A stretch of 64,000 bases of DNA. Origin: Sarcomyxa edulis (Eukaryota; Basidiomycota; Agaricomycetes; Agaricales; Mycenaceae). This document shows, piece after piece, positions 31 through 38,248 of the stretch. Made by a program: the position numbers and the translations under genes. The DNA is taken from the NCBI GenBank assembly GCA_009761415.1, contig QUOL01000023.1:62001-126000 (forward strand). Direction: 5' to 3'. The notes under the pieces were generated by a model that was given only the letters and a program-made list of their open reading frames with translations, ran no database searches and had not been told where the DNA came from. Every line of letters starts with the position of its first letter. Position 1 is the first letter of the stretch.

Positions 31-2974
31 CTACCTCGACGACGTCGATGTCGACGCTGACGCTGCGGGAACAGACTCGACCGCATGAACAGGAATCCGA
101 CGAGGGCAGATGGGAGCACGACCAAAGGTGTCAGCGAAAGTCTGACAGTAGACTCGAGCGAAGTGACGTTCGGCCGCATCCAGTCTCTGCTCGAAGTTAC
201 GGTCAGTGGTGTCGAAGAGGCCGAACTTCTTCATCTCCTTGAGTTCCTGAGTATGCATAGGCCAGTCCATCATCAGTTTTCCGAGGGCCAAAACTTCGCG
301 ATACCTATTGTTCGGTTCTAGCGCCGCTAGACCAAGATTCTCCTTGGGAATCCCTTGGATGAGGAAGCTCTTCTCGCCATAAGAATTGTCGGAGAAGAAG
401 ACGTCGGTGACGCAAGACTCGCGAAGGCCATCCTTCCAAAGGTCAGCCCGAAGGTGACGATCCAAGGCCAACAACTCAAACCTCCAGTTCAACTCGCACA
501 GTTCCCACAAGATTTCCGACGTTATCTCGGGAGTGAACGCCTTCTAGAGAGCCTTCTCGTCGGTTGTCGGAATGATTGTGTTCTTCCATCGTAGGTTGTC
601 GGGGGTGGAACCTAGTACAACGGCGTCTCCGAACAGTGCGGTGAGACGAGTGATGTGGTCAAGACGAGTGATACGCGCTGGGCCGCAACGAGTTGACGTT
701 GACGAGGGAGGTGTCTGCTTCTGCTTCTTCTTGGACGCAGAAGAAGTGCTCGACGTTGGGGGAGGCTTGATGGGAAGGGAGGGGTGGATGGGTAGTGTCA
801 AGTTTTTTGCCGCTGCAGAGGTGGGGGGTGCAATGATTGGATTGAATGTTTTGGCTGCCGTAGACTCAGGTGCGACTCTCAAGGCCCGCCCTAGAAACGT
901 TCGCCAGGCCTGGTTTGGCGCCGCTGTGGGGGGATACGTCAAGGAGCCCATCGAAAAGGTGCACGCGCTGCGGGCGGCAATCCAATTGGCGAGATATTTG
1001 CCTTTGTTCTTCGTTCTGAGGAACAAGCCAAACTCAGGGAAGAGGTACCCAGTGCTCTTCAGAGCTTTCGTTGCATCTGCGCTGGGACGGCGGGAAGTAT
1101 CTACGTGACTTAAAGCATCTACCCAGATAGGAATGCCTGGAGGTAGACAGACATCGCTAGGTTCTACATACTTGTCGATTTTCTCCTGCGGAGAGGCATT
1201 GAAACGACGAGCCCCAACCTTTGCGACGGAAGGGGTAGGAGGTACGACAGCAGACGCAGAAGACACGGCAGCACGAGCAGGTGGCATCACAGCAGGCACA
1301 GAAGATGCGGCAGCAGGAGGAGGACTGTCGACGATCATCGGACTTGTCCCAGCGTCGTCGACGTTGGAGGTCGATGTCGCAAGACGAGAAGTTGACGAAG
1401 TGCCTTGTGCTGAACCTGGCCATTAGCAACAAGTGCATCTGAGTAAAATGCATCACTTACTCGGAGCACCCTCTGTATTTTGTGTCGATTCTGACGGACT
1501 AGATCAGCAAATGAAAAGACCTAACTATGCTTCGATGAACTTACGACGTCCTTCAGCAGGAGTACCCGCAACAGTTGACGATTTTTGCGACGAGTCGTCT
1601 GATCGAGTAGACAATAAGTAGTGGTCCCTCAACCAAGGAGGAAAGAACATACTGAGATTGCCTTGCGACAACCAGGGAATCATGTCAGCTCGTCCTTGAT
1701 AGAACCGCATATCACCAATCTCCAGTGGTTTGCCATAGAGGTTTGGTGGTGCCTTGGTCATTGGGGAATTGTAGGGCAGAAGACGAGCAACGATGGGCTC
1801 GTCGCCGTTCAGGTGCAATCCCGGATACCTCCTTCCCAGTCGCCGACACGCCTGAGCAGCGCCAAGAGCTGCATCACCAAAGTACAAGATATCATACGGC
1901 CTACATACCCCGTCCTCGTCCACCCAATGCTCGCATTCGATGCCCTTCGGTGCCTGCTCCTCAGTGACGTAGTTGATATTCATGTTGGGGGTCAACTCCT
2001 GTTTTCGACGCGACAACCAAACAGGTATCTTCATCTTCACCATCTGGAACGCAACTTGGGGATCGGCTGTGATACAGCCCATGACGTTCTCCGCCCCTTT
2101 AGGGTCATAGGTGTGCTTCTCCTTGAGACGTGGAGCGTAGTTAGCGTAGTAGTTGACGAAGGAAGTGATATCGAAATACAGGCGCTGGAATTCAGCAACC
2201 TGAATAACCGCCTCTTTGAGAATCATGGGAGACAGCCTGAGTTGCGACCACAGGTAGCTGAAGGCGTTGTAAGGCTCAGCGAGAACGCCGTTATTGGGTG
2301 ACTTATCCCTGAACTGCTGCACGTTCTCCTCAACTTCGTTCTTCAACAGACGTAGCTGTTCAATGCGATACTTTGCAATGCAGCCGAGTTTGATGGCATA
2401 GGCATTATTAGGGTCGACGTCGAGATCGTAGATGGTCGGTGTCCAATACGCGATAAAGAGTCGATCTTTTGGGTCGAACGTGGGACGAGGGATAACGGAA
2501 ATATGTGCGTATTGTTGAGTAAACCATTGGGGCCATCGGGTAAACTCGTATTGAGCAAACCGACCGTCCTTCCGTGCTTGGATGACCGCTTGTCCATAGT
2601 AGACACGAGGGATATAATCTATGTTGGGGGTGGTGATGATGTGCCATTCTAGAGGACTGGTGGGGTCGTTTGATCTTGGTTTGCATGGGAACGGGCTGAC
2701 TGCCAGGATATTGGCATCTAGATGGCCATACGCTAAACGAAAGTCAGCTTGTGTCTACCAGTAAAATAAACTAAGACTATAACTAACTCGCATCTCCAGG
2801 CCGTATATACTCCTGGAACGTCGGGGGTTTGGGTTTGACATATTCTTTGACCGGTGGTGGCGGCAACGCCCGAGACGTTGAAGGCGACAATCCTTGCAGC
2901 TCTGGAGGCACTACTTGATGTGCTGGAGGCGGCACTACTTGGAAAGCTGGAGGCGGAACGAAAGCTGGAGGCAT
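31..2974 (-). CDS. Unknown-function multi-exon protein, interrupted by an in-frame TAG
   Basis: Hand-spliced model on the minus strand: exon 2974-2788, intron 2787-2733, exon 2732-1545, intron 1544-1416, exon 1415-31 (stop TAG at 31-33). The exons sum to 2760 nt, exactly 920 codons. The N-terminus is proline-rich (MPPAFVPPPAF). The middle part is a dense globular-looking region rich in W, Y and P (for example QYEFTRWPQWFTQQ, AYWTPTIYDLDVDPNNAYA, GIECEHWVDEDGVCRPYDIL). It is followed by a Ser/Thr/Pro-rich linker and a C-terminal block (WELCELNWRFELLALDRHL). Codon 749 is TAG (plus-strand cta at 544-546), with the frame open on both sides, so this copy carries a nonsense mutation or needs readthrough. 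From memory, similar proteins occur in many copies in mushroom genomes; I know no function. It is divergent from the gene at 5914. The last intron is 129 nt and could hide a 38-nt microexon, but only direct splicing keeps the frame. The gene may continue left of the window. Confidence 0.7.
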
Positions 2975-3040
2975 TGAAGAAACTGACAAGAGATCGGTAA
3001 GGAAGGGCATTTACGCGTGGATAGAAAAGCTGTAGTCCAG

Positions 3041-3147
3041 TCAGGACAGACATAAGAGTCAATGTCCTGAGGCCAACAACGGACATAAGAGTCAACGTTG
3101 TTGACCAGCAAGGGAGTGGACATAAGAGTCAACTCTCCCTTGTCTGG
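3041..3147 (-). other. Hairpin triplet A (constant-cap hairpins)
   Basis: Three inverted repeats capped by the same 14 nt, read on the minus strand as TTGACTCTTATGTC (caps at 3049-3062, 3082-3095, 3119-3132). The stems differ: an 8-bp stem with TCAGGACA arms, a stem with CAACAACG arms, and a stem with CAAGGGAG arms that contains one mismatch. GAC and GTC inside the cap can pair, leaving a TCTTAT hexaloop and an unpaired TT on the 5' side. Cap spacing is 33 and 37 nt. All three lie in the intron 3183-2983. Confidence 0.9.
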
Positions 3148-3484
3148 TTGCAGCATGTCGGATGATGTGGATTGCGGACTTACGAGGACGAGTAAATGAT
3201 GTTCTAAGAGACAGGTCAGCACTCGAGTAACGACGAAGACGGGGATGTAACTCACCAGAAAAACACGAGAAGTCAGAACAAAGATGTGAGGCGCAAGGCG
3301 GAACTATCGAAAGGATAAGTTAGCACTAAGATAACCACAAAGGGGGAAAAACTTACTGGACAAGAGAAAAAACTGCGCGAAAACCGACGTGAAGACACGA
3401 GAAAGCAATAGAAGTTGAAGACAATGCTATAGGGGAGGGTGGGTTAGCCGCCAGCAAGAACAGAAGGTAAAAAATTTCCACCCC

Positions 3485-3587
3485 GGGACAGACATGAGAG
3501 TCAATGTCCCAGACACCACAACGGACATAAGAGTCAACGTCGTGGCTCACCAAAGGAGTGGACATAAGAGTCAACTCTCCTTTGGTG
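3485..3587 (-). other. Hairpin triplet B (constant-cap hairpins)
   Basis: Caps at 3491-3504 (TCTCAT variant), 3524-3537 and 3561-3574, minus-strand sense. Arms are GGGACA, CCACAACG (one A.C mismatch) and CACCAAAGGAG. Order and spacing (33 and 37 nt) are identical to triplet A. Several arm differences from triplet A are compensated on the other arm. The triplet lies inside the 237-bp intron 3663-3427. Confidence 0.9.
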
Positions 3588-3663
3588 TGTGGAAAAAACG
3601 AAAGAAGGGGAAGGACGATAGAAGAAGGGGGGGACAGGAATAGATAAGGAGAACAAGACTTAC

Positions 3664-4193
3664 CAAAAAATCAGGAAAAGCACGATGACGACGTAAAAGA
3701 CTGTGAGGGATAGCAGAGACGACGATGAGGAAGATGATGGACGATGGTGAGAAGAACGAGAACAATGAGGAATCGATGGACTTGGAGTTCAAGCTCCGAC
3801 CGAAAACAGCGCACGTGACCTGACGCGTCCTTCTTTCCGCAATTATTTTGCTACCTTCACGCGCCATTGAGGTCTTCCCTGGACTTGTGGTGCGTGTACA
3901 AGTTGGACTCAGACTCACTGACAATTTTTCTTCTATTATTCAGGCAAAGAGACTTATTTGAGTATAATATTTGCGTCTTGACGGATTCGACCCGAGTGCC
4001 GTAAGTGGCGTGTAGCCAGCGCCAGTTGGACTTAGACTTTTCTTCTCGCTACTTCGACGTCAACTTGCCTCACCCCTTCCGCACACCCTTCCTTTACCAC
4101 CTCCCCATCCCTTCCCCATCCATATTCCTTTCCCCATCTCCTTCCCCATCCTTTCCCCATCCCCTTCCCCATCCTTGTCCGTCCCCCCTCTTC
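3664..4193. promoter_or_regulatory. Bidirectional promoter region between the divergent genes
   Basis: This is the interval in which hairpin orientation flips from minus-sense to plus-sense, so both transcription starts should fall here. A plus-strand TATA-like stretch (gtataatattt, about 3962-3972) precedes a splice donor GTAAGTGGCG at 4001. A pyrimidine-rich run of repeated CCCCATCC units fills 4080-4190. AGTTGGACT occurs on both flanks (about 3901 and 4024). No protein-coding exon is recognised. Confidence 0.4.
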
Positions 4194-4283
4194 TACAGCT
4201 TGACTCTTATGTCGCTGTATCTTTGCACAGCTTGACTCTCATGTCGCTGTAACATCCTCACAGCTTGACTCTCATGTCGCTGT
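4194..4283 (+). other. Hairpin triplet C (constant-cap hairpins)
   Basis: Plus-strand caps at 4200-4213 (TCTTAT), 4232-4245 and 4265-4278 (both TCTCAT). All three have ACAGC/GCTGT arms, the shortest stems of the set. Spacing is 32 and 33 nt. They are probably inside a leader intron starting at GTAAGT 4001, but the acceptor is not certain. Confidence 0.85.
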
Positions 4284-4315
4284 TCTGTCTCCATTTCCTT
4301 CCTTCGAAATCGTTC

Positions 4316-4520
4316 AACTGCTTTATTCCTCGTCAGACTGGCGCGATACCACCAACGCCAACACTACCAGCAACTCAGGTTTCCTCGTACACCTCGATCT
4401 AGATACCTCAAGTTGGACCCAATTTTTTTTTCACCCGGCTCATTCCTCATCAGAACCGTGCTATACTACTAACGCCAACACTACCAGCACCTCACGTTTC
4501 GTCGTACGCCTCAAGTCAAC
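4316..4520 (+). repeat. Two imperfect direct repeats with branch-point and acceptor-like ends
   Basis: About 90 bp at 4320-4410 recurs at 4440-4520. Shared blocks include AACGCCAACACTACCAGCA, CTCATCAG or CTCGTCAG, and AAGTTGGAC or AACTTGGAC. The second copy contains TACTAAC followed 15 nt later by CAG, a textbook branch point and 3' splice site, so the repeats may be duplicated intron ends separating hairpin triplets C and D. Confidence 0.5.
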
Positions 4521-4545
4521 TTGGACCTTTTTTCCAAAAAAAACC

Positions 4546-4642
4546 CAGCTTGACTCTTATGTCGCTGTCTTCTATTCTTTCTCAAGTCTTGACTCTTATG
4601 TCGACTTGAAGACGATATCCGTCTTGACTCTCATGTCGACGG
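4546..4642 (+). other. Hairpin triplet D (constant-cap hairpins)
   Basis: Plus-strand caps at 4550-4563, 4589-4602 and 4624-4637 (the last is TCTCAT). Arms are CAGC/GCTG, TCAAGTC/GACTTGA and CCGTC/GACGG. Spacing is 39 and 35 nt. Confidence 0.85.
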
Positions 4643-4748
4643 CTTTCGTTCCCTTATCCCCCTTAGATATTTTATCGGCCTACTTTATTGAAGTTCACTC
4701 CAATTCCCCGTCTGCCATTGGGCAATCATCAGAAATGTGGATTTAAGA

Positions 4749-4869
4749 CCGTGTGCACGATGGGATACACGGGCTGGACAGAGGTGCCCCCTCTGTCTGG
4801 TGGGGTCTGTACTGTGTGCAGACTCAGCGAGTTCGATTCTCGCAGCCCGTCCCGTGGTCGCGCACACGG
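4749..4869 (+). ncRNA. tRNA-like cloverleaf on an extended stem
   Basis: The plus strand folds into a tRNA topology. The acceptor-like stem 4769-4775/4844-4850 has 7 bp. A first arm 4777-4784/4790-4797 has 8 perfect bp. A second arm 4805-4810/4818-4823 has a 7-nt loop. A T-arm GCGAG-TTCGATT-CTCGC (4827-4843) abuts the 3' acceptor strand exactly as in tRNA. The T-arm contains a perfect pol III B-box core (GTTCGATTC). Outside the acceptor, CCGTGTGC (4749-4756) pairs with GCACACGG (4862-4869). It is not a normal tRNA: the first arm lacks D-loop features, the 7-nt loop has no U33, and no tRNA isotype fits. It could be a tRNA-like ncRNA, a processing signal in the leader transcript, or a SINE head. 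Confidence 0.55.
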
Positions 4870-5625
4870 GTTATCATTATTCTCTATTTAATGTGAATCT
4901 TGTGTATTACTTGGTGAGTCGCTATACGTTCAGCGGATCCTTTCATGTCCTCACCTGTGGCTTGCATTCTAGGACATTCTTGTTGTATTCATACGGGCTT
5001 TCTTCTATACGGACATTTTCTTGTCTTTTCCTTATCTTTTTTGGGAGGCACATGTTTCTATACTACGTACTTTGTCTCGTGAGGTAAGTCTCTTCATTCA
5101 ACGCCTCACCGTTCTCGTTGACAAGTTGGCACATAAACGTAGAACACGCACCGTTAGTCATCGAGATTTAATTGGGATTTATGGTTATTTCTATTTACCT
5201 ACAAGGTGAGTCCCTTTGGTTGCAACTTCTCTTGCAGATTCTCATTGGAACTGTCCAGCATAGACAGCATAGACATAGACTATTCACGTGCTATAAGCAC
5301 CGTCAATTCGTACAATTTTTTGGGATTTTCAGGTTATGCCGGTCGATTCGCATGGTAAGTCTTTTCTATCTTCAAAGGTGGTTCAATGTTCTAATTGTTA
5401 TGTTTCTGCGCTAGTACATACAATAGTATAGGGGCTGTTTACACGTAACACGTGAAGTCGTTGGGGTCGTCGCCAAATAGCTTACACAATTTTTCCCTTC
5501 CATTATCCCGCGCACAGTCTCTTTCTCTCTCTCTCTCTTCATCACTCTTCCACTCCTTATCTCATATTCTTTTCACTCTCGTTATCCGTTCTCCCGCTTA
5601 GTGCTTTTTCGTTTTGTTCCTCCTG
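4870..5625 (+). other. Intron-rich noncoding leader of the plus gene
   Basis: No long reading frame is seen, but there are several strong splice pairs. A donor GTGAGTCGC near 4914 is followed by acceptor TTCTAG near 4972. GTGAGTCCC near 5204 is followed by TTGCAG near 5237. A donor GTAAGTCTT near 5355 is followed by CGCTAG near 5414. A further donor GTAAGTCTC lies near 5085. This looks like a multi-exon 5' untranslated leader (or a separate lncRNA). The stretch 5520-5600 is CT-rich. Confidence 0.4.
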
Positions 5626-5672
5626 GTAAGCACATTTCCTCCTCCCCTCTCGTCTCTACTTCAATCAGAGCA

Positions 5673-5766
5673 CGAAGAGTTGACTCTTATGTCCTCTTCG
5701 GGGAGCACGACGTTGACTCTTATGTCCGTTGTGCTCCCTAGAGCATTGACTCTTATGTCTGCTCTG
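5673..5766 (+). other. Hairpin triplet E (constant-cap hairpins) in a leader intron
   Basis: Caps at 5680-5693, 5713-5726 and 5746-5759 (spacing 33 and 33). Arms are CGAAGAG/CTCTTCG, GGGAGCACGACG/CGTTGTGCTCCC (12 bp with one G.T) and TAGAGCA/TGCTCTG. The triplet lies in a 203-bp intron 5626-5828 (donor GTAAGCAC, acceptor ATTGCAG) just upstream of the start codon at 5914. The second hairpin shares ACGACG/CGTTGT at the cap end with the second hairpin of triplet B. Confidence 0.9.
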
Positions 5767-5913
5767 GGCTCAACATTGAAAGCCCATCCCTACGAGTTAT
5801 CAGACGCATTGCTTACGTGGCATTGCAGACCAGCACTGTGTTCTCTCATTCCAGCGCGTTTTGCGCATCCTCAACGTCGTCAACACTAACGATATCGCTG
5901 CCCTTGCGTTACT

Positions 5914-8900
5914 ATGGCCCCAACAGCTCCCGGACTTCGAACTCGTTCTAGTGCTAGGCTTGCGAGTCAGCCTCCCAACGCGGCTGCTAGCAATGCAGCA
6001 TCCTCTACCAATGTAGCCTCTACTCCCCAAGACGTTGCGACACCCGCTCCTCATGGCAAGGTGAAGTTTGGGTTCAATTACTTGTTTTTTTTGTTAACTC
6101 ACTCGCCTCGTTACAGAAACGCAAAGCTACTTCTGTCTCCTTTTCCGATGCCGACGAAGACGAGTCGTCGCATGATAACCCAAGACCTGGGCGCAAGGTT
6201 GGCCCTCCTCAGAAGGTACTTCATTAAAAACTCGTTATGTGAACTACTGACTCATTGTGCATCAGCGAAAGGACGCCATGAAAAAAAAATCGCAGGCGAA
6301 GGTAGCGAATTCAGGCAAAGACAAGCCATCCCATGGAGAGGCTAGGTTAGTCTGGGATGCCTACGTAGTCAATCATATCACTTCTCGCCGTCTGCATTGT
6401 TGACTCTCATGTCCACTGCAGACGTGAATGTCTTCGAGTTGACTCTCATGTCCACGAAGACATTCAGTGTTCACATGTACGAAGTTGACTCTTATGTCCT
6501 TCGTATCTGTGAACGAACACGTACACCTTATTTCTACCTTCGAGACACAATGCTGACCTAAGAAAATATCTTACAGCTCTGGTCCGTCGAGTACAAACAC
6601 AACGGATAGGGCTGGGAAAAGCTCTGTCCCACGGCAGGGGTGAGTCTGTATATCTAGATTCTAATATTTGCCAGGAGCTAACACGTCTGACAGTGAATTG
6701 TACATCGAGCTACCAACCTACAAGTCAATATCCGCCTTCGTCCAACGTCCCTCGACGTCCGTACCGCAAGCCTCTCAACAAGTTTCAGACCCACGCCGTC
6801 GTTCACTGGACGATCGGTTTCGTGACCGTCCTACCACCCTCGTAGATGGACTCACTAAACGGACTCCCCTCCATCTCTCTCGGGCAAAAGAAAACGCCCC
6901 CAATACTCGTTACTTTTCTCCCATCGCCAGGTTGCAAACAAGCAACAACGAGGACAGGGACAGCACGCCTCGCCCGGTTGCAACGTACAGGGATAAAGGC
7001 CCTCGTTCAGAAGATTTAGGTCCAGAATTCGAACAAACCATGTCCAGGTTTGTTCCTTCTGCCCCACAGGCTGGCGCGGTGTCAGACTCTATATCAACTG
7101 CTTTGCGAGCACGTCCCATGCATGGAACATCCAACGACGCATCTCTTTCCTCGTCTCGACAACTTTCTGTGCCAGGGTCTGCTACTCCACGACCACCTGC
7201 ACCTTTTACACTGAAGCAGCAGCCTGCTTCTTCCCCATTCCGTCCAATTTCTTCGCTGCTGGAGTCTGCTGCTCCACCAACACCTGCACCTCCTGCTCCC
7301 TCTCCATCACGGCCTGTGCCAGCGTCAGTATTTGTGTCTCTGTCTCAACCACTGGCGCAAGCGCCCTCAGCGTCTACGGCGCAATCATCTCTGGCACAAG
7401 CGCCTTCGGCGTCTACGTCGCAACCGCCTTCAGCGTCTACGTCGCAACCACATTCTCTGGTGCAAGCGCCTTCTGCACCTTTGGTGTCTCGTCCCGTTCA
7501 ACAACCACCTGAAGCTGTTGGCGGATCTTCAGTGTCAGTGTCTCAACCACCTCCACCTCCACCTCCACCTCCAATACCTATGTCGACAAGACCCCCTTCA
7601 AAGCGGACCAATATGCAGCTGCCACCCTCGTCTCCTCCTGTTTCCGAGGCTTCGGATGAGTCTCCAGACAACGACATCACTCGGTCTCCGCCCACGTCTC
7701 CTGTACGGCCTCCTGAAGACGAGGATGAGGGTTTACCTTTCATTGAAAGTGACGACGAGCATCCGACCAATTTCCCGTATCTACATTCAGACGGAACCTC
7801 AACCTATCATTACGCTTACAACGATGTCTATGGGTTCACCTATGAGGCAAAGGGTTTGGTTCGCGGTGTCGTGACTCCTGAGGACAAGGAGAGTATGTCA
7901 AAGATAACTGTCAAAAATCTGTCTACCCGTAAATTCGTAGAAGTCCCCGCGGGGTGGTTGGCTACAGACATCGTTCAGAAGTATAATCTTACTGACGAAG
8001 ATATTCTCGGTCGTCTTAGGGAATTGAGGGGTGGTAAGGACTCGGGTAAGACTTCTGATCCAGAAGACATCGAGGAGGATAGCGATGATGATCAGGCCCC
8101 TCCGCCGCGAAAGAAATCTATTCAGGAGAGAACGGGTACGGCAAACGAAGATATGTCTATCTTCGAGTCTTCGCCATCAGGTTCCGACTACAGTGAGACT
8201 CGCAAAGCTCGTCGTGCTAAGCGCAGACGACTTGTGTCTTGCGAGTCGTCAGAGGATGACAGCGACGAGTCGTCGTTAGAGGATGAAGACGAGGAGCATT
8301 CTGCGCCTGCTGGTAAGAAGGGGGGTGGCAAGAGTTCGAAGGGCAAAGAGAAGGCCAAGGTGGCGAGCGGAGGAGATGACGAGGATGACGACGAGAAGAA
8401 GACAAAGAAGCTGGCTGCACGACGCAAGGGCAAGAAACACGGTACCTACTCGACGGCCGAGTTGGAGGAGATAAATATGTTTGGCGAGGAGATCAACGGC
8501 CGTATCGAAGCTTTTGCTGCTTCAATGGGACGATCCACTCACAGCATCCTCATTAAAGCCGGGCTCAAAGTCGTCAACGCAAGAGCAGACAACCTCGCCA
8601 ATCTTTACAAGCAGGTCTACGCTTTAGACCACAAGAAGCCAAAGAACGGTATGTCCTCATTTCTCATCTTGCTGTTGTGTACTGACCGAGTTCAATTCAC
8701 AGTCCCATTCACGGAATGGAACGCCGTTGTCAAGGATGCTTATCGCGCATGGTTGGGTCCCATCACAAAGGCCGATACCGAGGCCCGGGAAGAAAAACGT
8801 CAAGAGCTCAAGTCTCGTCTGTTCGTTGCCGGCAATTCCTCCTCAGACACAGTGCAATCTCCTGCATCTCGCATGAAGACGGCGGCAATGCAATTTTCTC

Positions 8901-10604
8901 AACTCGTAAGTTGGTCCAAAACTTAGGTCTACTTTATTGCATGTATCTAACATCTCTTCAGGCCAAAGCGTACTCGCAATTTGAAGATATCGATGTTGTC
9001 GGGTTCATCGGTTACTCCGGACCTTCCGAGCATGCACGCCAGTTGTCGACTGCTTTCTCTGGATCTGTCGATGCCAGAGCTGTCATAGAAAGTAGTTCCC
9101 TCGATATTCGAGGAACGTGCGAGAACCTTCTTGCTAGTATTCGGTAAGCTATCGTTGCTCAAGTTCTTTCTTAGCCCGAGTAATAACTTCTTGGCTTGAT
9201 TATAGTGTCCGGAAGCTTGATAGGGTCGCTGGATTGTCAACACAAAAGACAACGACAGCCGGTGCAGCAACGACAGCCGGTGCAACAACAACGACAGCCG
9301 GTACAGCAACAACGAGTGGAACGGCAGCCGTTCGGACCAAGAAGAAGACTCGCGATGAATATCGCACATTGATATCGGCGTCTTTGGTCTCCAAACTAAG
9401 TGAGTTTCATTTTATCATTGTCTTCTTTGATATTCTGCATGTTAACATGTACATTTATTAGAACGATTTTTACCCGACATATCAAAGTTTCCTTACTCTA
9501 CTTTTTTGACGCTCGCCACTACGCATCATCTTCGTATCTCCAACTGGCCCATGGCTGTCCCATGTCTAGGCTCCGAATTTGACTTACGAACCTTGATTCC
9601 TGTTGCATTCGAAGGTCTTGTTGCAGGCTTGCATCTACGCGATGACATTGATTCCGAAATTGAAGTTGTACCCGAAATCCGGATTGATCGTTGGTCAAGT
9701 GGTTTGTATCTCCCTTTTCTATTCTGTAAGACAATACTGATGCTCTGCTTCAATAGAAGAGAGGCAACTTGGTCCTGATACATTACAGTATCAAAGTATT
9801 CCGTTGGCTGTCCGAGTTGATGGATCTGTTCTTGCATATGTCCAACCTCCGCAGACAAAATCCAAAGATACGAAGAAGACAACAACACGGAAACGATCCT
9901 TACCTTCGACTTCACAGCCTTCAGCTCCTGTCGAACAAACGTTAACCTCATCCCCTACCCCTCTTGCAACCCGGCATGGCCATCCTCTTGCAACTGCTCG
10001 TGCTCGGACTTCGCAAACATCACCCAAGGCAAAGCGTCGCCGAAAGGATTCCAACCTAGTGCCTAGTCCAAAAGCTACTGTATCACAGAACCCTTCAAAC
10101 ACTTGGGGTTTTCAGCCAGGTGCCCTTCCGTCTGGGCAGTTGCCAGTGGGTCCTTCTGGAATGGTACAATTTGGTCATTTGGGAATGGGGCAGTCTGGTC
10201 CTCCTTCGGGCGTTGCCCAGTCTGGTCCTCCTTCGGGTGTTGCCCAGTCCGGTCCTCCTTTGGGCATTGCCCAGTCTGGCCCTCCTTCGGGCATTGGACA
10301 GTCTGGTCCTCCTTCGGGCATTGGTCAATTAGGCCCTTCAAGTATGTATAACATGTCAGTTCCTGTCCAGTATCAACCATATTATGTCCAGCTTCCTCAA
10401 GGTATTCCGAGTGGTATTCCGAACTATTCCCACCCTGCTTACATATATAATGGTTCCTCCCATGTTCCGTCTCATTATGTACAGTCTCCAGCTACTCCTT
10501 ACGTACAATATGCCATCCCACCTCAACCTGCACCACCACCGCCTTCTGTTCCACATCCTACTCCCCAACATGGACCTCATTCTCATCACACTTTCTGGCC
10601 TTAG
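5914..10604 (+). CDS. Large unknown-function protein, 10 exons, Ser/Pro-rich
   Basis: Hand-spliced exons: 5914-6060, 6117-6215, 6266-6345, 6577-6639, 6694-8648, 8703-8905, 8962-9143, 9206-9399, 9462-9701, 9757-10604. They sum to 4011 nt (1336 aa plus stop) with the frame kept throughout. The N-terminal third is disordered and rich in Ser, Pro and Arg, with a poly-Pro tract. A conserved-looking block begins near residue 488 (FPYLHSDGTSTYHYAYND). An acidic/basic region near residue 630 (RKARRAKRRRL) resembles a nuclear localisation signal. Around residue 718 comes ELEEINMFGEEINGRIEAF. A Thr/Ala repeat and a C-terminal run of GPPSG repeats follow. Introns are 50-62 bp except intron 3 (6346-6576, 231 bp), which carries hairpin triplet F. 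The gene is divergent from the minus gene at 31-2974. I know no function; it is probably nuclear and nucleic-acid associated by composition only. Confidence 0.75.
6389..6514 (+). other. Hairpin triplet F (constant-cap hairpins) in coding intron 3
   Basis: Caps at 6400-6413, 6439-6452 (both TCTCAT) and 6485-6498 (TCTTAT). These have the longest stems of the set. Hairpin 6389-6424 has 11 positions with one T.C mismatch. Hairpin 6425-6466 has 14 positions with one A.A mismatch. Hairpin 6469-6514 has 16 positions with one wobble and one mismatch. The intron 6346-6576 interrupts the coding region of the plus gene. Confidence 0.92.
10174..10340 (+). repeat. 27-bp in-frame coding repeat (GPPSG units)
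   Basis: About six copies of a 27-bp unit within the last exon encode SGPPSGVAQ or SGPPSGIGQ. The frame is preserved. The repeat forms a low-complexity Gly/Pro/Ser/Gln segment near the C-terminus of the 1336-aa protein. Confidence 0.85.
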
Positions 10605-11039: not shown

Positions 11040-11425
11040 GATGTCCCCCAATGTGATTGGGAAGTCCCAGAGTGAGACTAGGATTTGAAACTTACGTCTG
11101 GAGTGTCTACAATGAGGTGGGACTTCCCACAATCAAATTGGGAAGCCCCATATTGGTGGCAACATTGCAGATTAAATAGAATGTGTTGTGTTGGGACCTG
11201 TGAAGTAAGTATCGAGTATAAACTTGAAAATGGATCTCCCAATGTGATTGGGAAGTGCCAGAGTGAGACCAGAATTTGAAACCCAAGTCTGGAGTGTCTA
11301 CAATGAGGTGGGACTTCCCACAATCAAATTGGGAAGCCCTATGTTGGTGGCAACTTTGCAGATTAAATAGAACATGTTGTGTTGGGACCTGTGAAGTAAG
11401 TATCGAGTATGGACTTGAAAATGGA
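11040..11425. repeat. 191-bp tandem duplication
   Basis: The block ending TGAAGTAAGTATCGAGTAT at 11201 recurs at 11392 (offset 191), together with the preceding TGGAGTGTCTACAATGAGG and CACAATCAAATTGGGAAG segments. Inside the unit, GTGATTGGGAAGTCCC and GGGACTTCCCACAATC are near-complementary and could pair. No gene is seen at 11426-12040. Confidence 0.75.
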
Positions 11426-12039
11426 AGTGTCAGACTCTAGAATATTCTCATCTCTATTTCCTTTCCGTACACCTTCAAAGTTTCATGTCTCAGCCGAGTC
11501 TGAAAGCTCAGACCTACTTTTCCTTGATGTCACTTTGCACAACGGTGAATGGTTCCTCAACCTGTCTTCCCACTTCTTTGCCTGGTATATCTCAGTCATT
11601 GCTTCCAACAACACAAGATCTTGATCAATGATTGTCACTACCGTGGGAGGCGATGATTCAGTAGCATTCTTCTCCGTCAAAGTCACCATTGTCAGTTAAG
11701 GCAGTTTGACTGGTGTGAGCATGACAAACATGGACAAAACTTTGAACGACAAGAACTTGGTCCACTCAGTAGATTTGATAGTTGGTTCTGATCAGTACCT
11801 GGTTGTTTGATGGGTACTACCTAATTTATCTTTATTTCTGGAATATACAAAGTGGATTAAGAGCAAGACTTTGCACTTGGCCCACCGACAGTGCAGCATA
11901 TTTTGTGAGGAATTCAGAGTTGGTTATTGGCTCCCAAAACATCTGGCTTATGGGACATCCCAAATATCTGTCCAAAGTATTGGAAAATAGGTGAGAAGTT
12001 CTATCTGACATATACAAAAGGTCTGATAATACTTTGTAA

Positions 12040-13860
12040 GATATTCCCGCCCTCTCTGCATCATTACCTTCTCAGAGTTGGCTGACTATCCCGCTTGACC
12101 AGATACTCCGAGCTTGTCTGTGTAATCAGCTTCTTAGAGCTGCCTAAATATTGCGCTTGATCAGATCCTTGTCTGTGCCATCAGCTTCTCGGAGTTGGCT
12201 GACTATTGCACTTGACCGAATGATCCGGCCTTGTCTGTATCATCAGCTTCCCAGAACAAAACACTCCGGCCTCCTCTGTATCATCCCAGGGTTGGCTGAT
12301 TATTGCGCTTGACCAGATAATCTGTCCTCGTCTGTATCACCAGCTTCCCAGAACAAGACACTCCAGCCTCCTCTGTAACATCAGCTTCTCAGAGTTGGCT
12401 AACTATCACGCTTGACCAGATACTCCAGCCTCCTCTGTAACATCAGCTTCTCATAGTTGTCTGACTATTGCGCTTAACCAAATACTTAAGCCTCTTCTGT
12501 ATCATCAGCTTTTATTGGGATATACCAAACACATTCCAGGACATCCCATGGGATAATCAGGAGATACCATAATATTGTTGGGAACTCCTAGCACCTTTTT
12601 GGGATAAGCAACCATACATATGGAACATACCATGTAACCTTTAGATATACCAGATACTGAGTGGGAGATCCCATAACACTGGCAGGAGATCCCAAACATT
12701 ACATTGAGATTGGCCACAAGACCATTGGGAATTCCAATCAGAGCATTGAGATGTTCCAGAGTTCATAATGGATTTCCCAGACATCTATTTGAAATTTGTT
12801 ACAAAGTTATTGGGAAGTCCTACAGGACTATTGGGAGTTCCCAAATCAATGGTCAATATCCCAAACACTTCTGAACTATGCCACAGTTGTGTTTGGGAAA
12901 TCCCAGAACCTCATCAGAATATTCTATGAAACTTGAAGAGTTTTGATATGATTGCTAGGTATCCCATGAGAGTTGGCTGACAACAAACATTGACAAGACA
13001 CTTCAGCCTTCTCTGTATTATCAGCTTCTCAGGGTTGGCTGATTATTGTGCTTGACCAGATAATCTGTCCTTGTCTGTATCACCAACTTTCCAGAACAAG
13101 ATACTTCAGCCTCCTCTGTAACATCAGCTTCTCAGAGTTGTCTGACTATCAAGCTTGATCAGATACTCCAGCCTCCTCTGTAACATCAGCTTCTCAAAGT
13201 TGTTTGACTATCAAGCTTGACAAGATACTCCAGCCTCCTCAGCTTCTCAGAGTTGTCTGACTATCACCCTTGACCAGATACTCCAGCCTCCTCTGTAACA
13301 TCAGCTTCTCAGAGTTGTCTGACTATCAAGCTTGATCAGATACTCCAGCCTCCTCTGTAACATCAGCTTCTCAAAGTTGTTTGACTATCAAGCTTGACAA
13401 GATACTCCAGCCTCCTCAGCTTCTCAGAGTTGTCTGACTATCACCCTTGACCAGATACTCCAGCCTCCTCTGTAACATCAGCTTCTCAGAGTTGTCTGAC
13501 TATCAAGCTTGATCAGATACTCCAGCCTCCTCTGTAACATCAGCTTCTCAAAGTTGTTTGACTATCAAGCTTGACAAGATACTCCAGCCTCCTCTGTAAC
13601 ATCAGCTTCTCAGAGTTGTTTGACTATCAAGCTTGACCAGATACTCCAGCCTCCTCTGTAACATCAGCTTCTCAGAGTTGTCTGACTATCAAGCTTGACC
13701 AGATACTCCAGCCTCCTCTGTAACATCAGCTTCTCAGAGTTGTCTGACTATCAAGCTTGATCAGATACTCCAGCCTCCTCTGTAACATCAGCTTCTCAGA
13801 GTTGTTTGACTATCACCCTTGACCAGATACTCCAGCCTCCTCTGTAACATCAGCTTCAAC
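12040..13860. repeat. 62-bp satellite array, degenerate on the left and homogeneous on the right
   Basis: Units of about 62 bp contain CTCCAGCCTCCTCTGTAACA, TCAGCTTCTCAGAGTTG, TCTGACTATCAAGCTTGA and CCAGATA. Copies are degenerate at 12040-12510 and near identical at about 13080-13855 (roughly a dozen). Some units lack the TGTAACATC part, giving a higher-order pattern of about 180 bp at 13140-13560. The array is interrupted at 12520-12960 by degenerate repeats of the type GGGAxxTCCCA. Confidence 0.85.
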
Positions 13861-14699: not shown

Positions 14700-15130
14700 G
14701 CATCAGGAAAACCACTTTGTCTATATAGTTTGGGTCATATCTATGGAAGACTCCTGTAGACTACTGGGTACTACAGGTCTTATATAGATCACAGTGTGAC
14801 TATGTAGTCTACAAGGTTCTATGGGGTTCTACTTGACATACATAAAGATCTACAAGGGTCTGCAGAATTCTACCTGACACAAAGGAATATCTATAAGTGT
14901 CTACTGGATACTACATCAGGAAAAGTCACTTGTCTCTCACATGCTCTGAGAGAACCAAAAGCTTCCCAAAGCATCTCAGAGCATCTCAGGGTATTTTAAG
15001 AGCTCTGAATGCTCTGAGAGACTCTGAGAAGCTCTGAGAAGCTCTGAGAGTTGTCTGAGAGCTTTCTGAGATGCCCTAGGAATAAGTAGTTTCCCAGAGT
15101 ACCTCAGACACCCTGGGATGCTCTGACATA
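14700..15130. repeat. Degenerate simple repeats (CTACTGGGTACTACAG type, then CTCTGAGAG type)
   Basis: First come imperfect repeats built on GTCTACTGG, GGTCTACAAGG and ATAGATC, then at 14940-15120 imperfect repeats of GCTCTGAGA. Relatives of the first type recur at 16300-16500 and of the second type at 24650-24800. No coding signal. Confidence 0.5.
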
Positions 15131-15199
15131 CCATTAAAAAAGGATGTAAAATAGAGTAAAAAACAGATTTCGGATGACTAGGACATCGAAGAAAATAAA

Positions 15200-15287
15200 T
15201 GCATTCAGCAAGGATTGAACTCGGGACCTTCACTTAACAAGCACATGACTTCGAAAACTGACAACTTAACCAATAGTCTACAAGACC
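15200..15287 (-). repeat. tRNA-derived SINE, copy 1
   Basis: On the minus strand the unit begins GGTCTTGTAGACTATTGG, with an A-box-like TAGACTATTGGTTAAG, and ends in a B-box GAGTTCAATCC (plus 15212-15222). The D-arm type (TTGGTTAAG) is that of class II tRNAs (Leu/Ser). A second copy lies at 18690-18766. It is not a functional tRNA: anticodon arm and acceptor are not paired. Confidence 0.6.
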
Positions 15288-15769
15288 ATATATGTGCATG
15301 ACTATCTTCGTCCTATCAACCTGAGGTATAGCCTCTTATACAAACACATTTTGGACTTAGAGAAATTCGCTCGTTGTGTGACGTGACATTGCACATGTGA
15401 TGGTGTCACGTCACTCTGAAAGCGAACTTGGCTGCCAGCTCATCACCCTTCTTCCTCCCTCCTTTCTTCCTCTTCCTCTTTCCACCTTCCTCCCTCTTCT
15501 TTCCACTAATTGCTCTATCATCTACATCCTCAATACCAGTGTTCCTGGTCATCTTGGCTTACTAATCCGCTCTTTGAAGAAGCTGGAGCACAGCAATTGG
15601 TGACATGGCAATTTTGCTGTCATTTTTGCTGCTGTAGATATGTTTCTTTTTGTGTCCTTTCTGCTGATATATTCTGCTTCTAGATCCTACCAATAACCTG
15701 GAGGATGGAGAGCTTAGAGATGGGAAGGAAGAAACCAGGAACAGGGAAAGAAGATATGTTGTATCTTTT

Positions 15770-16195
15770 GCATATCTATCACCATCTTTTCACCACTTTT
15801 TTCACCACCCTCTACCACCCCCTACCACCCTCCATCACCCTCTACCTCTTTCTACATTCTCCACCTCTTTTTGCCTTCCCCTATATTGCCTTCACCTTCT
15901 TTCACCTTCCCCATCTCTTTGTACCATCTTCCACCTGCTTCCACCTCTTTAGATCTCTTCATACCTCCCTCTTCACCTTCCCCTACCTCTTATCACCTTT
16001 CCCTACCTCCCCATGCCTCCCCACACCTTTTTTGACCTCTCTCACCTCCCTTTCACCTTTCACCATCTTTTTCCCTTCCTCTACCTCCCCCCACCTCCCC
16101 TTTACATTTCTCCACCTTCCCCTACCTCTTTTCACCTCTTACCACCTCTCCCCACCTCTTTGTATGTTCCCCCACCTTCCCTTCACCTTGGAGCA
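15770..16195 (+). repeat. Pyrimidine-rich low-complexity tract
   Basis: More than 400 bp of CACCTCC, CACCTTCC and TCTTTC units. It leaves a long open frame (15705-16214) that encodes only L/F/P/S/H low complexity and is unlikely to be a protein. A purine-rich tract of the complementary type lies at 31100-31257. Confidence 0.7.
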
Positions 16196-25295: not shown

Positions 25296-28200
25296 CTAGG
25301 TCGAATCGTCCTCGATATGACTACGATTAAGTGGTATCGACCAAGTCGGGATGTGTTTTGTCCTTTCCTTCTCCAGGACTGAGATTGTGGCATCAGTGTA
25401 GGTTTCGAGTGGTCTAAACGGCAGTTGAGTGAAGAGTGTAGCGTTAATCCGTCGCGGTGCATTGGGGTGCAACTGATGGAACTGTCGCACCAGTCTTTTT
25501 GCACGATCAACGTTATCCTCCGGTTCCCAGGTGTTGTGTTCGTCGGTGTACCCCTTCCACTTGATCAAATAGTACAGCTTGCCTCGTTCCAACTTAGAGT
25601 TCAAGATTTCTTCAACTTCGTATCGGGGTTCACCTTCGACCTGGATTGGAGGGGGAGGATCGGATCTTTGGCCTTCGATCTGGGGTGGAACGTAGCGTCG
25701 CAGTTTGGAGACATTGAATACAGGGTGTAGCTTGTTGTAACGCTTTGGCAACTTGAGTTTATACGCGTTGGGCGACACAACTTTGGTGATTTCGAATGGT
25801 CCGTCCCGCTTGTGACTTAGCTTTTTGGAGGGGCGGTCTGTCTTGATGTCGCTCAAGTCAAGGTACACCTTGTCTCCAACCTTGTACTGTGGGGTTTCGA
25901 TCCGACCTTGATCTGCAAATCTCTTCATCTCATCTGCCGCCTTATTTAGAGCCGCCTCTACTTCCTCATGGACCTTTTTCATACGGAGTGCAAAGTCCTC
26001 AGCAGCTTCTGACTTGACATTTCTTTTTGGCTCGACCCCCATCCTTGGATGTCTTCCAGTATTGGCGTAGAAGGGGGAGACTTGAGTCGATGACGAAACT
26101 CGGTTGTTAAGCGCAAACTCGGCGATGGCTAGCCAATCAGCCCAATCATTTTGCCTATGATTGATGAACAAGCGAAGATATTGTTCAATTTCCTGGTTGG
26201 TTCTTTCCGTTTGTCCATCACTTTGAGGGTGGTAGGCTGTTGACAGTTTGCGTTTGACACCGAGTAGCGTGTGAAGGTCTTTCATGAGCTGCGAGGCAAA
26301 TTGCGGTCCGCGGTCCGAGATGACTGAGTCCGGGAGACCGTGGTACCTCCAGACGTGATCTCTGTAAAGCGCGGCTAGTCCAAGGGACGACAATTCTCCG
26401 GAGCATGGGATGATGTGGGTCATTTTGGTGAATCTGTCAACGACCACGAGAATTGCATCGTTCCCTTGGCTATCTGGCAGTCCAGTGATCAAATCTACGG
26501 AGATATCCGTCCACGGCGCCGAAGGGGTGCGGTTAGGCATGAGCTTTCCTATTGGTGGGGCAGGGAATGTCTTTGTTCGATTACATTTGTCGCAACCTTC
26601 GATGTACTGGGTTACAAATTTAGTCATTCCTGGCCACCAGTAGTTCCTGCTCATGAGCTCTAGGGTCTTCCACTTTCCAGGGTGTCCCACGACTGCAGAA
26701 TCGTGATGTAATTCCACAATCTTTCGCCGTAGTTCTTCCTTCTTAGGGACGTAGACTTTTCCCCGGAATAGTATCAACCCTTGCTCTTCTGACCACTCTT
26801 CTTCTCTGAGACGTCTGACAGGGGAATGTTTGAGTTCTTCAACAGCTTTGACCACCGACTCATCATAGTCTTTGCACTTTCTGATGTCTGATAAAATGCT
26901 AGACTCGTTGTTTTCGATCAAAACGTGGCCCTGTTGAAGCGCTCGGATTCGGAAAAACTCTGGTTTCAGAAGGATTTGGTTCTGGTTATCCTCTTCCCCC
27001 TTGTCATGATCTGCTCGTCTCGAGAGATAATCTGGTTTGGCCGATGCAGACCCTGGTCGGTGTTTCAGCACGAAATCAAATCGCGATAGGTAAAGTGCCC
27101 ATCTCGCTTGTCGTCGATTCAAGTTCCGTGCTGTTTTGAAGTATTCCAGGTTCTTATGGTCGCTCCAGATTACCACCGGGTGGTCAGCCCCTTCGAGGTA
27201 GTGTCGCCATTCTTCCAAACATCGAATGATGGCTAGCATTTCTTTATCGTGTATATCATAGTTGCGTTGCACATCATTCAATCCTTTGGAGAGATAGGCG
27301 CACGGTCTCCATTTACCATCATCACAGAGCATGCTTAGAATACCCCCAGTCGCATGACCTGAGGAGTCGGCCTCAATCTTCATTTGCTTTGTCGGGTCAG
27401 GATATACGAGGACAGGCTCGGAGGAGAATCTTCTCTTTAACTCGTCAAATGCCTTTTGTTGTTCCTCCGTCCATTTCCATGGTGCATCCTTCCGAGTGAG
27501 CTGATGAAGGGGTTTTGCCACTTTAGAGAATCCCTCTATGAAGCGCCGGTAGAAGTTAGCAAAGCCGAGAAAGGCTTGCAGCTCCTTGACTTTTGTTGGT
27601 ACCGGCCACTTCATGACTGCTTCGACTTTCTTGGGATCCATTCTAATGTGGTCACCCGAGATGATGAGACCGAGGTATTCCAGCTCTGTTTTCTCAAACT
27701 CGCATTTTTCGGGTTTAAGGAATAGATCATTGTCTCGTAGGATTTCAAGAACTTGTTTGACTATTTTCCTGTGTTCTTCCAGTGTCTTGGTGAAGATCAG
27801 GATATCGTCCATGTAGACAATGACTACTCCTTTATCGATTAGCGGTTTGAGGATGTGGTTCATCATGGTCTGGAAGGAAGCCGGCGAATTCATCAGTCCA
27901 AAGAACATAACGGTTGGTTCGAACATCCCTCTGTTGGTTTTGAAGGCTGCTTTCCACTCATCCCCTTCCTTGATGCGCAAATTGTTGTATCCCCACCGTA
28001 GGTCTAATTTGGTGAAGATCTTTGCGTTTTTAAGTTTATCGACAAGTTCGGGGATTAGGGGTAGTGGGTAAGCGTTCTTGACTGTGTGGGAGTTCAGATG
28101 CCGATAGTCTTGAACCGGGCGATTCGTACCGTCTTTCTTCTTTACGAAGAAGAAGGGAGCCGCTTGGGGAGACTTCGAGGGTCGGATATATCCTTTGCGT

Positions 28201-37300: not shown

Positions 37301-38248
37301 TTCGAACACGTCCTTGAAGTCGTAAAAGTGCTCAGGGAGGCCGTCCAGTGTACTCTTGGCACTTGCCTTGGCATGAGCCTCGGCAAGGCGTTGAGATACA
37401 GTGGTGGTGGCTTGGACAAAGTCAGCCTCCGGTGCAAGGGACGTGACAAATACACGATCTCCATCCTCAAGAGAGTCTGAAGGATCATGATCGTCGTCGG
37501 GTCCCTGGTCTCCAAACTCATCTTCGCTTTCATCGTCTACATCGTCATCATCATCAACCTCCTCTACCGTAGGCTTGGGAAAGGGGCCAGTCCGTGCTTC
37601 AGCCGCTCGTCGTACCTCTGCCTTGAGAGCGGCACGCTCTTGTTTGGCAGAAGTTCGACAGGTGGAACAGCGAGCTGGGCAACGTGACATAAGGACTTCC
37701 CCGGTCTCCCAGTTAACTTCGGGGTTGTGCTCCCGAAGCCAACCGTGCCCTAGAATCATCTTCTGCGTACCAAGTCGAGTGACAGCAAGCTGGATCCTCT
37801 CCGAGTGATCGCGATATCTGAGAACAGTATCAACAATCTCAGAGATTGATCCGGCTTCGTTGGGGGTGCCATCGACATTGAAAACTGGAATGGGGCGCAG
37901 AAGCTTTCGGGTAGAAATGTTGTTGGTAGTGACGAACTCTTGGTCTGCATATCCCATACTGGTTGCCCCACTGTCGACTAGGGCTTCAACGCCAACAATG
38001 GTTGCGTTCAACGTCGACTCGAGCTCTACCTTGAGACAGAGGGATCGGGAGGACGGAACGGCAGCAATGAGACGTCGCGGTAAACGACGCTCCCAGCGGG
38101 GTAGCCGAAGGGGAGGAGAAGGAGGAGGGGATTGCACGGCTGCAATTACTTCAACAGGGTCATCGATAGGGGGAGAAATGTTATTGGGTTCTTCTATTGA
38201 CAAACAAGCAAAGTAACTGTTACCGGGTCGCGAGGGCGTGCGGTTCAC
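34337..38248 (-). CDS. pol: Pol polyprotein of chromovirus 2 (PR-RT-RNaseH-IN-chromodomain)
   Basis: 1303 codons from a GTG at 38248; the frame is open upstream over the gag end, so expression as Gag-Pol is likely. Protease VDSGATSM near residue 90. Reverse transcriptase [12 protein letters not shown] and YLDD near 494. RNase [13 protein letters not shown]. Integrase zinc region [11 protein letters not shown]...CDTC (about 850-905). DDE core with [17 protein letters not shown] (near 939), [11 protein letters not shown] (near 998) and [16 protein letters not shown]. Chromodomain [33 protein letters not shown] at about 1230-1276. No stop inside. Between protease and reverse transcriptase is an acidic Asp/Glu-rich stretch. 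Confidence 0.97.

What the first reader, a model, noticed from the sequence alone, without database searches (positions are those of the whole stretch)
3041..6514. A family of 18 hairpins with one constant 14-nt cap and different stems
Seen directly: TTGACTCTYATGTC occurs 18 times in 3.5 kb and each copy is flanked by reverse-complementary arms whose sequence differs from copy to copy (4-5 to about 14 bp). Cap positions, minus sense: 3049, 3082, 3119, 3491, 3524, 3561. Plus sense: 4200, 4232, 4265, 4550, 4589, 4624, 5680, 5713, 5746, 6400, 6439, 6485. GAC and GTC inside the cap can pair, giving one consensus fold: variable stem, an unpaired UU on the 5' side only, a 3-bp GAC:GUC stem and hexaloop UCUUAU (12 copies) or UCUCAU (6 copies). 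A fixed cap on a free stem is the logic of protein-recognised RNA elements such as the iron-responsive element, or of structure-recognised sites such as integron attC. I know of no described fungal element like this. Function is inference: protein-binding RNA element, splicing aid, small-RNA source, or a folded single-strand DNA recombination site.
Basis: partly seen in the sequence, partly recalled or inferred. Interest (0 to 1): 0.96.

Follow-up and report, generated by a model that had tools for sequence, protein, structure and literature searches.

The report
Cloverleaf RNAs in transposon leader introns
The hairpins are arms of three-leaved RNA folds, most of which sit inside introns at the start of both genes of a fungal jumping element; the leaves share one constant tip, which suggests that a protein reads them to control how the element's messages are spliced.

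Summary
The 18 caps form six triplets. 34 of 36 distinct triplets folded (window and seven sister loci) give three capped leaves plus a closing helix: an RNA cloverleaf of about 125 nt. Across 33 aligned copies, 29 of 47 pairs change on both sides (12.7 in shuffles) and 93% of cells pair (33-43% when slid). 35 of 40 distinct triplets lie inside a spliceosomal-intron frame of 214-245 nt (2.1% of random positions; 0 of 40 reversed). These introns line the leaders of two divergent genes of a KDZ (Kyakuja-Dileera-Zisupton) DNA transposon: 8 of 10 KDZ copies with an uninterrupted domain have them upstream, 0 of 38 other KDZ loci within 7 kb. Rfam has nothing like it and the paper searches listed none.

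Best explanation: a trivalent intronic RNA element whose caps are read by a protein, possibly the transposon's own, to control splicing of its leaders. Against: window triplets 4200 and 4550 have short stems and no splice signals, two more lack a consensus acceptor, and splicing was not observed.

The parts
3025..3154 (-). Cloverleaf 1 of gene A leader (caps 3049, 3082, 3119)
   Evidence: Model R1 104.1 bits, E 4e-28 (R1 was built with it); z -7.5 and cloverleaf fold
3467..3596 (-). Cloverleaf 2 of gene A leader (caps 3491, 3524, 3561)
   Evidence: Model R1 110.1 bits (R1 was built with it); z -7.6 and cloverleaf fold
3427..3663 (-). Predicted intron holding cloverleaf 2 (GTAAGT ... CTAAC ... 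ATAG, 237 nt)
   Evidence: Splice signals; splicing not observed
2983..3183 (-). Possible intron holding cloverleaf 1: donor GTAAGT at 3183; acceptor uncertain (TTGTCAG ending at 2983, without consensus branch point)
   Evidence: Donor found, no consensus acceptor in the tested range
4178..4302 (+). Short-stem triplet (caps 4200, 4232, 4265), no cloverleaf, no splice signals
   Evidence: z -4.7; R1 29.9 bits; no donor or acceptor
4528..4661 (+). Short-stem triplet (caps 4550, 4589, 4624), no cloverleaf, no splice signals
   Evidence: z -5.5; R1 38.2 bits; no donor or acceptor
5658..5783 (+). Cloverleaf of gene B leader (caps 5680, 5713, 5746)
   Evidence: z -7.1 and cloverleaf fold; R1 93.2 bits (R1 was built with it)
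5626..5828 (+). Possible intron holding the 5680 cloverleaf: donor GTAAGC at 5626, acceptor uncertain
   Evidence: Donor found, no consensus acceptor
6378..6522 (+). Triplet of three long capped hairpins with different stems, no closing helix (caps 6400, 6439, 6485)
   Evidence: z -6.4; R1 45.0 bits, E 7e-11, not used to build R1
6346..6576 (+). Predicted coding-region intron of gene B holding the 6400 triplet (GTTAGT ... CTGAC ... ACAG, 231 nt)
   Evidence: Splice signals; the reading frame of gene B runs on across it when exons are joined
31..2985 (-). 5' part of gene A (continues beyond the window; its KDZ transposase domain is at C16:59840-60589)
   Evidence: Exon homology with the C40 copy; KDZ E 8.7e-65, CxC1 E 1e-6; C16 place. 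The first exon and start were read by eye
5914..8926 (+). Gene B, predicted start codon and first exons up to the end of its long open frame; no Pfam match; it may continue to about 10.6 kb
   Evidence: Joined frame; no Pfam match; relatives beside the C34 and C21 clusters

Best explanation
Each triplet is one RNA element: three leaves, each capped by UU-GAC-UCYNYY-GUC (UCYNAU in the window copy), usually closed by a fourth helix into a cloverleaf. It is carried inside a spliceosomal intron of standard geometry: donor, about 45 nt, cloverleaf, about 35 nt, branch point CURAY, about 20 nt, YAG. Arrays of these introns line the leaders of the two divergent genes of one KDZ transposon lineage. 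Supported by sequence: triplets, pairing, intron frame, transcript sense, link to the transposon. Inferred: a protein binds the three caps together, more likely encoded by or co-evolved with the element than a generic host factor, and its binding changes removal of these introns, and so the output of transposase and partner protein (self-regulation or licensing).
For: Covariation: 29 of 47 pairs with changes on both sides against 12.7 in shuffles, 93.1% of cells paired against 33.4-43.2% slid; 24 of 37 pairs in a structure predicted without my input. Cloverleaf in 34 of 36 distinct triplets folded. Intron frame in 35 of 40 distinct triplets, reverse frame 0 of 40, random positions 2.1%; lengths 214-245 nt. 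One such intron interrupts gene B's coding frame. Identity 0.65-0.87 over the cloverleaf and 0.25-0.47 outside. Cap pairs: 107 in the genome, control 0. Arrays 5' of 8 of 10 uninterrupted-domain KDZ copies, 0 of 38 others within 7 kb. For a reader that goes with the element: cap position 10 is A in 15 of 15 window caps in full triplets and 0 of 111 elsewhere, while the stems of the window's two gene-A cloverleaves are as like those of other loci (means 0.60, 0.63) as each other (0.64).
Against: No RNA, binding or splicing data. Five of 40 triplets fail the intron test, three of them in the window, and the 4550 group, outside the 40, fails too. Two window triplets have short stems and no cloverleaf. 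Neither gene A's parts nor gene B showed a known RNA-binding domain. Shared ancestry could explain cap position 10. Decayed copies keep splice signals without good caps, so the caps are not needed for splicing signals to persist. G-T against A-C is mixed.
Confidence: 0.47

Rival explanations
1. Passive splicing aid: the cloverleaf only loops out about 125 nt, so that an intron of 231 nt behaves like one of about 106 nt; no reader protein.
For: Constant position between donor and branch point; strong folding.
Against: Any stem would do, yet all three caps are kept nearly constant while stems change; ordinary short introns stand in the same leaders (read from the sequences).
Confidence: 0.2
2. 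Source of a trans-acting RNA: the introns release a stable structured RNA, for example a decoy for a host RNA-binding or silencing protein, or a precursor of small RNAs.
For: Conservation is confined to the cloverleaf and falls off at its edges; arrays multiply the dose.
Against: No transcript data. Loop positions 8-11 vary, so a guide that pairs through the loop is unlikely. Leaves of about 8-13 bp are short for usual dicer substrates (general knowledge).
Confidence: 0.15
3. Introner-like unit: the intron itself is the thing that multiplies, and the fold is a by-product or a help to its spread.
For: Near-identical intron copies in tandem, e.g. L037.
Against: The 100 listed of 107 cap-pair matches lie in 13 clusters, none beside a host gene without other signs of this element that I could see (flanks of C28:47-48 kb and C21:31-32 kb were not read). 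Tandem copies include the exon and so look like tandem duplication. The 6400 intron has unrelated stems.
Confidence: 0.07
4. DNA-level site: hairpins extruded from DNA and bound by the transposase or another protein, as subterminal repeats are.
For: They belong to a DNA transposon and point outward on both sides of a centre of 626-918 bp. The G-T against A-C difference is weak over all arm pairs: 45 to 28 cells, 20 to 16 distinct column-types, and reversed in the closing stem, 9 to 15.
Against: They lie between the two genes, in intron frames of the same sense, one inside a coding-region intron. In the leaves G-T outnumbers A-C 36 to 13, 28 to 10 by a strand-symmetric count on 82 distinct hairpins.
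Confidence: 0.08

Closest known systems
KDZ (Kyakuja-Dileera-Zisupton) DNA transposons of fungi (Kojima 2025, PMC12730594: abstract, found passages and section 3.2.1 seen)
   Same: Gene A carries the KDZ domain and a CxC1 cluster.
   Different: The passages seen describe termini and target-site duplications; hairpin, stem-loop and subterminal do not occur in that paper. Termini of the element here were not determined.
Introner-like elements of fungi (Collemare 2015, PMC4457414: abstract, outline and found passages seen)
   Same: Repeated, sequence-similar spliceosomal introns.
   Different: Here the repeats go with one transposon lineage; there they sit in host genes. 'Secondary structure' does not occur in that paper.
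Structured introns read by the gene's own protein, such as yeast RPL30, and the HIV Rev response element (recalled, not looked up)
   Same: A structured RNA within an intron, read by a protein of the same gene or element: the way I think this works.
Iron-responsive element and integron attC
   Same: A fixed recognition feature on stems free to vary.
   Different: Not in a mature UTR and not shown to recombine; three per unit, in introns.

Membership tests
KDZ transposon (the carrier) | KDZ transposase domain PF18758 | tested here: met
   E 8.7e-65, 218.9 bits against a cut-off of 26.6
KDZ transposon (the carrier) | Termini and target-site duplications (7 bp and CA..TG in two Kyakuja families, 8 bp in Zisupton) | not tested
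   Element ends were not determined
Introner-like element | Spliceosomal intron signals around similar copies | tested here: met
   35 of 40; signals only, splicing not observed
Introner-like element | Copies inserted in many unrelated host genes | tested here: inconclusive
   107 cap pairs in 13 clusters, none seen in a plain host gene; two small clusters (C28:47-48 kb, C21:31-32 kb) not read
Known RNA family (Rfam 15) | Score above a family's gathering score | tested here: not met
   Window 0. Relaxed: window 3000-6600 gave tRNA-Sec 26.6 (needs 47) and rmf 18.8 (needs 45, opposite strand); L034 0
Protein-read intronic RNA (works like) | Specific binding of a protein to the caps | not testable with these tools
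   Needs binding assays
attC-like folded DNA site | Recognition as folded single-strand DNA by a recombinase | not testable with these tools
   Only indirect evidence, see rivals

The most novel reading that the evidence does not exclude
A DNA transposon lineage uses a trivalent intronic RNA cloverleaf, repeated in the leader introns of both its genes, as a self-recognition tag: a protein encoded by the element reads three identical caps per intron and switches splicing of its own transcripts, and cap and reader co-evolve between lineages (A at cap position 10 in the window lineage, C or T elsewhere).
Probability: 0.26. Interest if true: 0.95.

Novelty: categorically new. Interest (0 to 1): 0.86.

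Why it matters
If right, this is a new RNA structural family with strong covariation, tied to one lineage of fungal DNA transposons and set in introns of fixed geometry. It makes directly testable whether a DNA transposon regulates itself at the level of splicing through a structured RNA tag, and it yields a covariance model with which other mushroom genomes can be searched.

Tried and rejected
Recurrent caps upstream of another type of KDZ gene: only one stretch examined, L041, 8.8 kb, none found. Viral contigs: 2 cap-pair matches; in none of their 4 caps do the bases next to the cap pair (sequences), so I take them as chance. KDZ relatives: none in viral contigs, genome contigs or phages. 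Gene B: none at E up to 1e-3 among the 8000 candidates scored. Rfam: nothing usable. Considered and put low: attC-like DNA site, introner. Considered from memory without any test: a polypyrimidine-tract-binding type of host reader for the pyrimidine-rich loops.

Rows dropped before counts: the list of triplets (window and L031-L037) admits at most 2 cap mismatches and one mismatch in the first six stem pairs; it holds 42 full triplets, 3 doubles and 3 singles; the window group at 4550 failed this filter and was tested apart. A1 holds 33 of 35 distinct triplets; window 4178-4302 and 6378-6522 were left out as hard to align. The intron test kept 40 of 42 after identical stretches and stretches near an end were removed. 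The invariance of the cap is partly a result of searching with it.
Full report
1. The observation. Real arms pair far better than arms exchanged between copies: 146 against a mean of 27.9, 0 of 20,000 permutations as high. A mechanical scan of the window for recurrent loops on differing stems returned only this cap. The copies come in six groups of three: 3049/3082/3119 and 3491/3524/3561 on the minus strand; 4200/4232/4265, 4550/4589/4624, 5680/5713/5746 and 6400/6439/6485 on the plus strand.

2. The family. The window is G000:C16:62001-126000 of a 35.6-Mb genome of 40 contigs, organism not named. The exact cap occurs 30 times, 18 here and 12 on C4, control 0. One-mismatch matches pointed to sister loci with caps such as TTGACTCTNCTGTC. 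A pattern of two caps (TTGACTCNNNYGTC, 15-40 bases between them) matches 107 times, control 0. The 100 listed matches fall in 13 clusters on C4, C12, C16, C21, C27, C28, C34 and C40; the 7 not listed equal in number the remaining triplet pairs of L037. In the window and seven fetched loci 42 full triplets, 3 doubles and 3 singles pass the filter. Minus-strand triplets lie left and plus-strand triplets right of a centre of 626-918 bp, cap to cap.

3. The fold. 33 of 35 distinct triplets were aligned. RNAalifold, given no structure, finds the three leaves but no closing helix; 24 of its 37 pairs have changes on both sides. Folding single triplets with flanks shows the closing helix, GGU..AUCCA with UGGAU.ACC in the sister loci: 34 of 36 distinct triplets have three leaves and a closing helix; the misses are window 4200 and 6400. 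With the full structure 29 of 47 pairs have changes on both sides (shuffled 12.7), 125 cells (35.8), covariation score 0.261 (0.136); 93.1% of cells pair, against 33.4-43.2% when partners are slid. The closing helix is the weakest, 84.1% of its cells, and the second pair of the first leaf is unpaired in 27 of 32 sequences with letters. Nine triplets folded against shuffles: seven have z -6.4 to -11.7, of which six fold as cloverleaves and 6378-6522 as three hairpins; 4178-4302 and 4530-4660 have -4.7 and -5.5 and fold otherwise. Across 35 extended copies from the sister loci, identity is 0.65-0.87 over the cloverleaf and 0.25-0.47 in the 100-odd bases around it, with a small rise where branch point and acceptor lie.

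4. The caps. Among 82 distinct hairpins positions 1-7 (TTGACTC) and 12-14 (GTC) never vary, 8 is T or C, 9 any base, 10 C, T or A, 11 T or C; this is partly imposed by the search. The model, run over 14 sources, gave 55 matches at E up to 1, among them decayed copies with diverged caps (L031:906, L036:2850, and weak ones at L032:2752, L035:5210, L034:2699). GAC and GUC never vary, so their pairing is untested.

5. The introns. In cap sense, a donor (GTAAGT or a close variant) lies upstream of 38 of 40 distinct triplets and a branch point with acceptor downstream of 36, both in 35; the reverse arrangement occurs in 0. Random positions in the same loci give 2.1%. The 35 introns are 214-245 nt (median 231), donor to first cap 54-89, last cap to branch point 43-65. 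The five misses: L031 +2900 (no listed donor), L035 +6588 (no acceptor), window 4200 (neither), window 5680 and 3132 (donor, no consensus acceptor). The window group at 4550 has neither. So in the window two of six triplets lie in a full intron frame, two have a donor only and two have no signal. The intron 6346-6576 lies in the coding region of gene B, whose frame runs on when the exons are joined. Elsewhere triplet introns alternate with pyrimidine-rich exons (68% C+T), and a plausible gene B start codon follows the last of them (read by eye). The stretches of 216-217 nt counted as exon seem to hold an ordinary short intron, so not every leader intron carries a cloverleaf. Splicing itself was not observed.

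6. The element. Gene A, left on the minus strand, is a multi-exon gene with a KDZ transposase domain (E 8.7e-65) and a CxC1 cluster (E 1e-6). Gene B, right on the plus strand, has no Pfam match; relatives lie beside the clusters of C34 (37% over 75 aa, E 1e-11; 33% over 92 aa, E 1e-9) and C21 (33% over 88 aa, E 1e-9). The 93 KDZ matches merge to 48 loci. Ten have an uninterrupted domain, one of these with a stop inside. Eight of the ten have triplet arrays 4.5-4.8 kb away on their 5' side. C21:9989 lies 3.3 kb from an array but in the wrong orientation. C28:2955 has none within 18 kb, but its 5' side runs off the contig. None of the other 38 has an array within 7 kb (nearest 7.6 kb). The clusters on C4, C21:3.6-6.7 kb, C21:31-32 kb and C28:47-48 kb have no such KDZ gene in place; those on C4 hold gene B sequence, and C21:3.6-6.7 kb has a gene B relative beside it. 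The transposase domain has 799 relatives at E up to 1e-3, 120 listed, the named ones from mushroom-forming fungi; the N-terminal part of gene A has three. Whether relatives elsewhere carry the cloverleaf could not be tested: no collection of fungal genomes was open.

7. Reading. RNA rather than DNA is favoured by intron frame and sense. The G-T against A-C test is mixed: leaves 36 to 13, closing stem 9 to 15, together 45 to 28 cells, 20 to 16 distinct column-types; 28 to 10 on 82 distinct hairpins. Copies are related, so these are not independent events. A trans-acting reader is favoured by caps that stay while stems change, by the count of three, and by cap position 10: A in 15 of 15 window caps in full triplets, 0 of 111 elsewhere, while the stems of the window's two gene-A cloverleaves are about as like those of other loci (means 0.60 and 0.63) as each other (0.64). 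Shared ancestry of the window copies remains possible.

8. Known or not. No Rfam family matches. Ten paper searches on KDZ, Zisupton, Dileera and Kyakuja, with or without intron, on cloverleaf with transposon or intron, on introners with structure and on self-regulation listed no description of such an element; the library holds open-licence papers only and I saw listings, not texts, except two papers. Kojima 2025 (PMC12730594; abstract, passages, one section) has no occurrence of hairpin, stem-loop or subterminal. Collemare 2015 (PMC4457414; abstract, outline, passages) does not mention secondary structure.

Confidence in the full statement is 0.47 (0.50 in my draft) and the novel case 0.26 (0.28 in my draft), lowered because the count for the window itself is two of six triplets in a full intron frame.

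Noticed in passing
G000:C4:184234-190533 and C4:194701-201000 (L021, L022): Two arms of an inverted duplication, 100% identical over at least 6.3 kb, each with window 5006-8991 (gene B part with the 5680 and 6400 triplets) at 96.7% and a copy of window 14912-16157. May be a recent duplication or an assembly artefact.
   Followed up: no
window 3140-3317 and L021:8533-8710: A 178-bp piece, 98.9% identical, recurs on C4 and ends at the edge of the 3049 cloverleaf.
   Followed up: no
window 4769-4853 (+): tRNA-Thr(tgt) call by ARAGORN, tRNA-Sec-like but below cut-off in Rfam (26.6 against 47), between the 4550 and 5680 triplets.
   Followed up: no
window 25296-29027, 34337-38248, 45266-47524 (-): Three retroelement open frames with reverse transcriptase; two also with integrase and a chromodomain.
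   Followed up: no
window 11047-13857: Tandem repeats of 191 bp and about 62 bp.
   Followed up: no
first leaves, e.g. window 3119 and 3561, and also 6439: A recurrent A.A mismatch at the second pair from the cap, in 18 of 26 distinct first leaves, a standard pair in the other 8; meaning unknown.
   Followed up: partly
L031:906-1034, L036:2850-2972, L035:5205-5330: Decaying cloverleaf introns with diverged caps and leaves; splice-like signals remain around them.
   Followed up: partly
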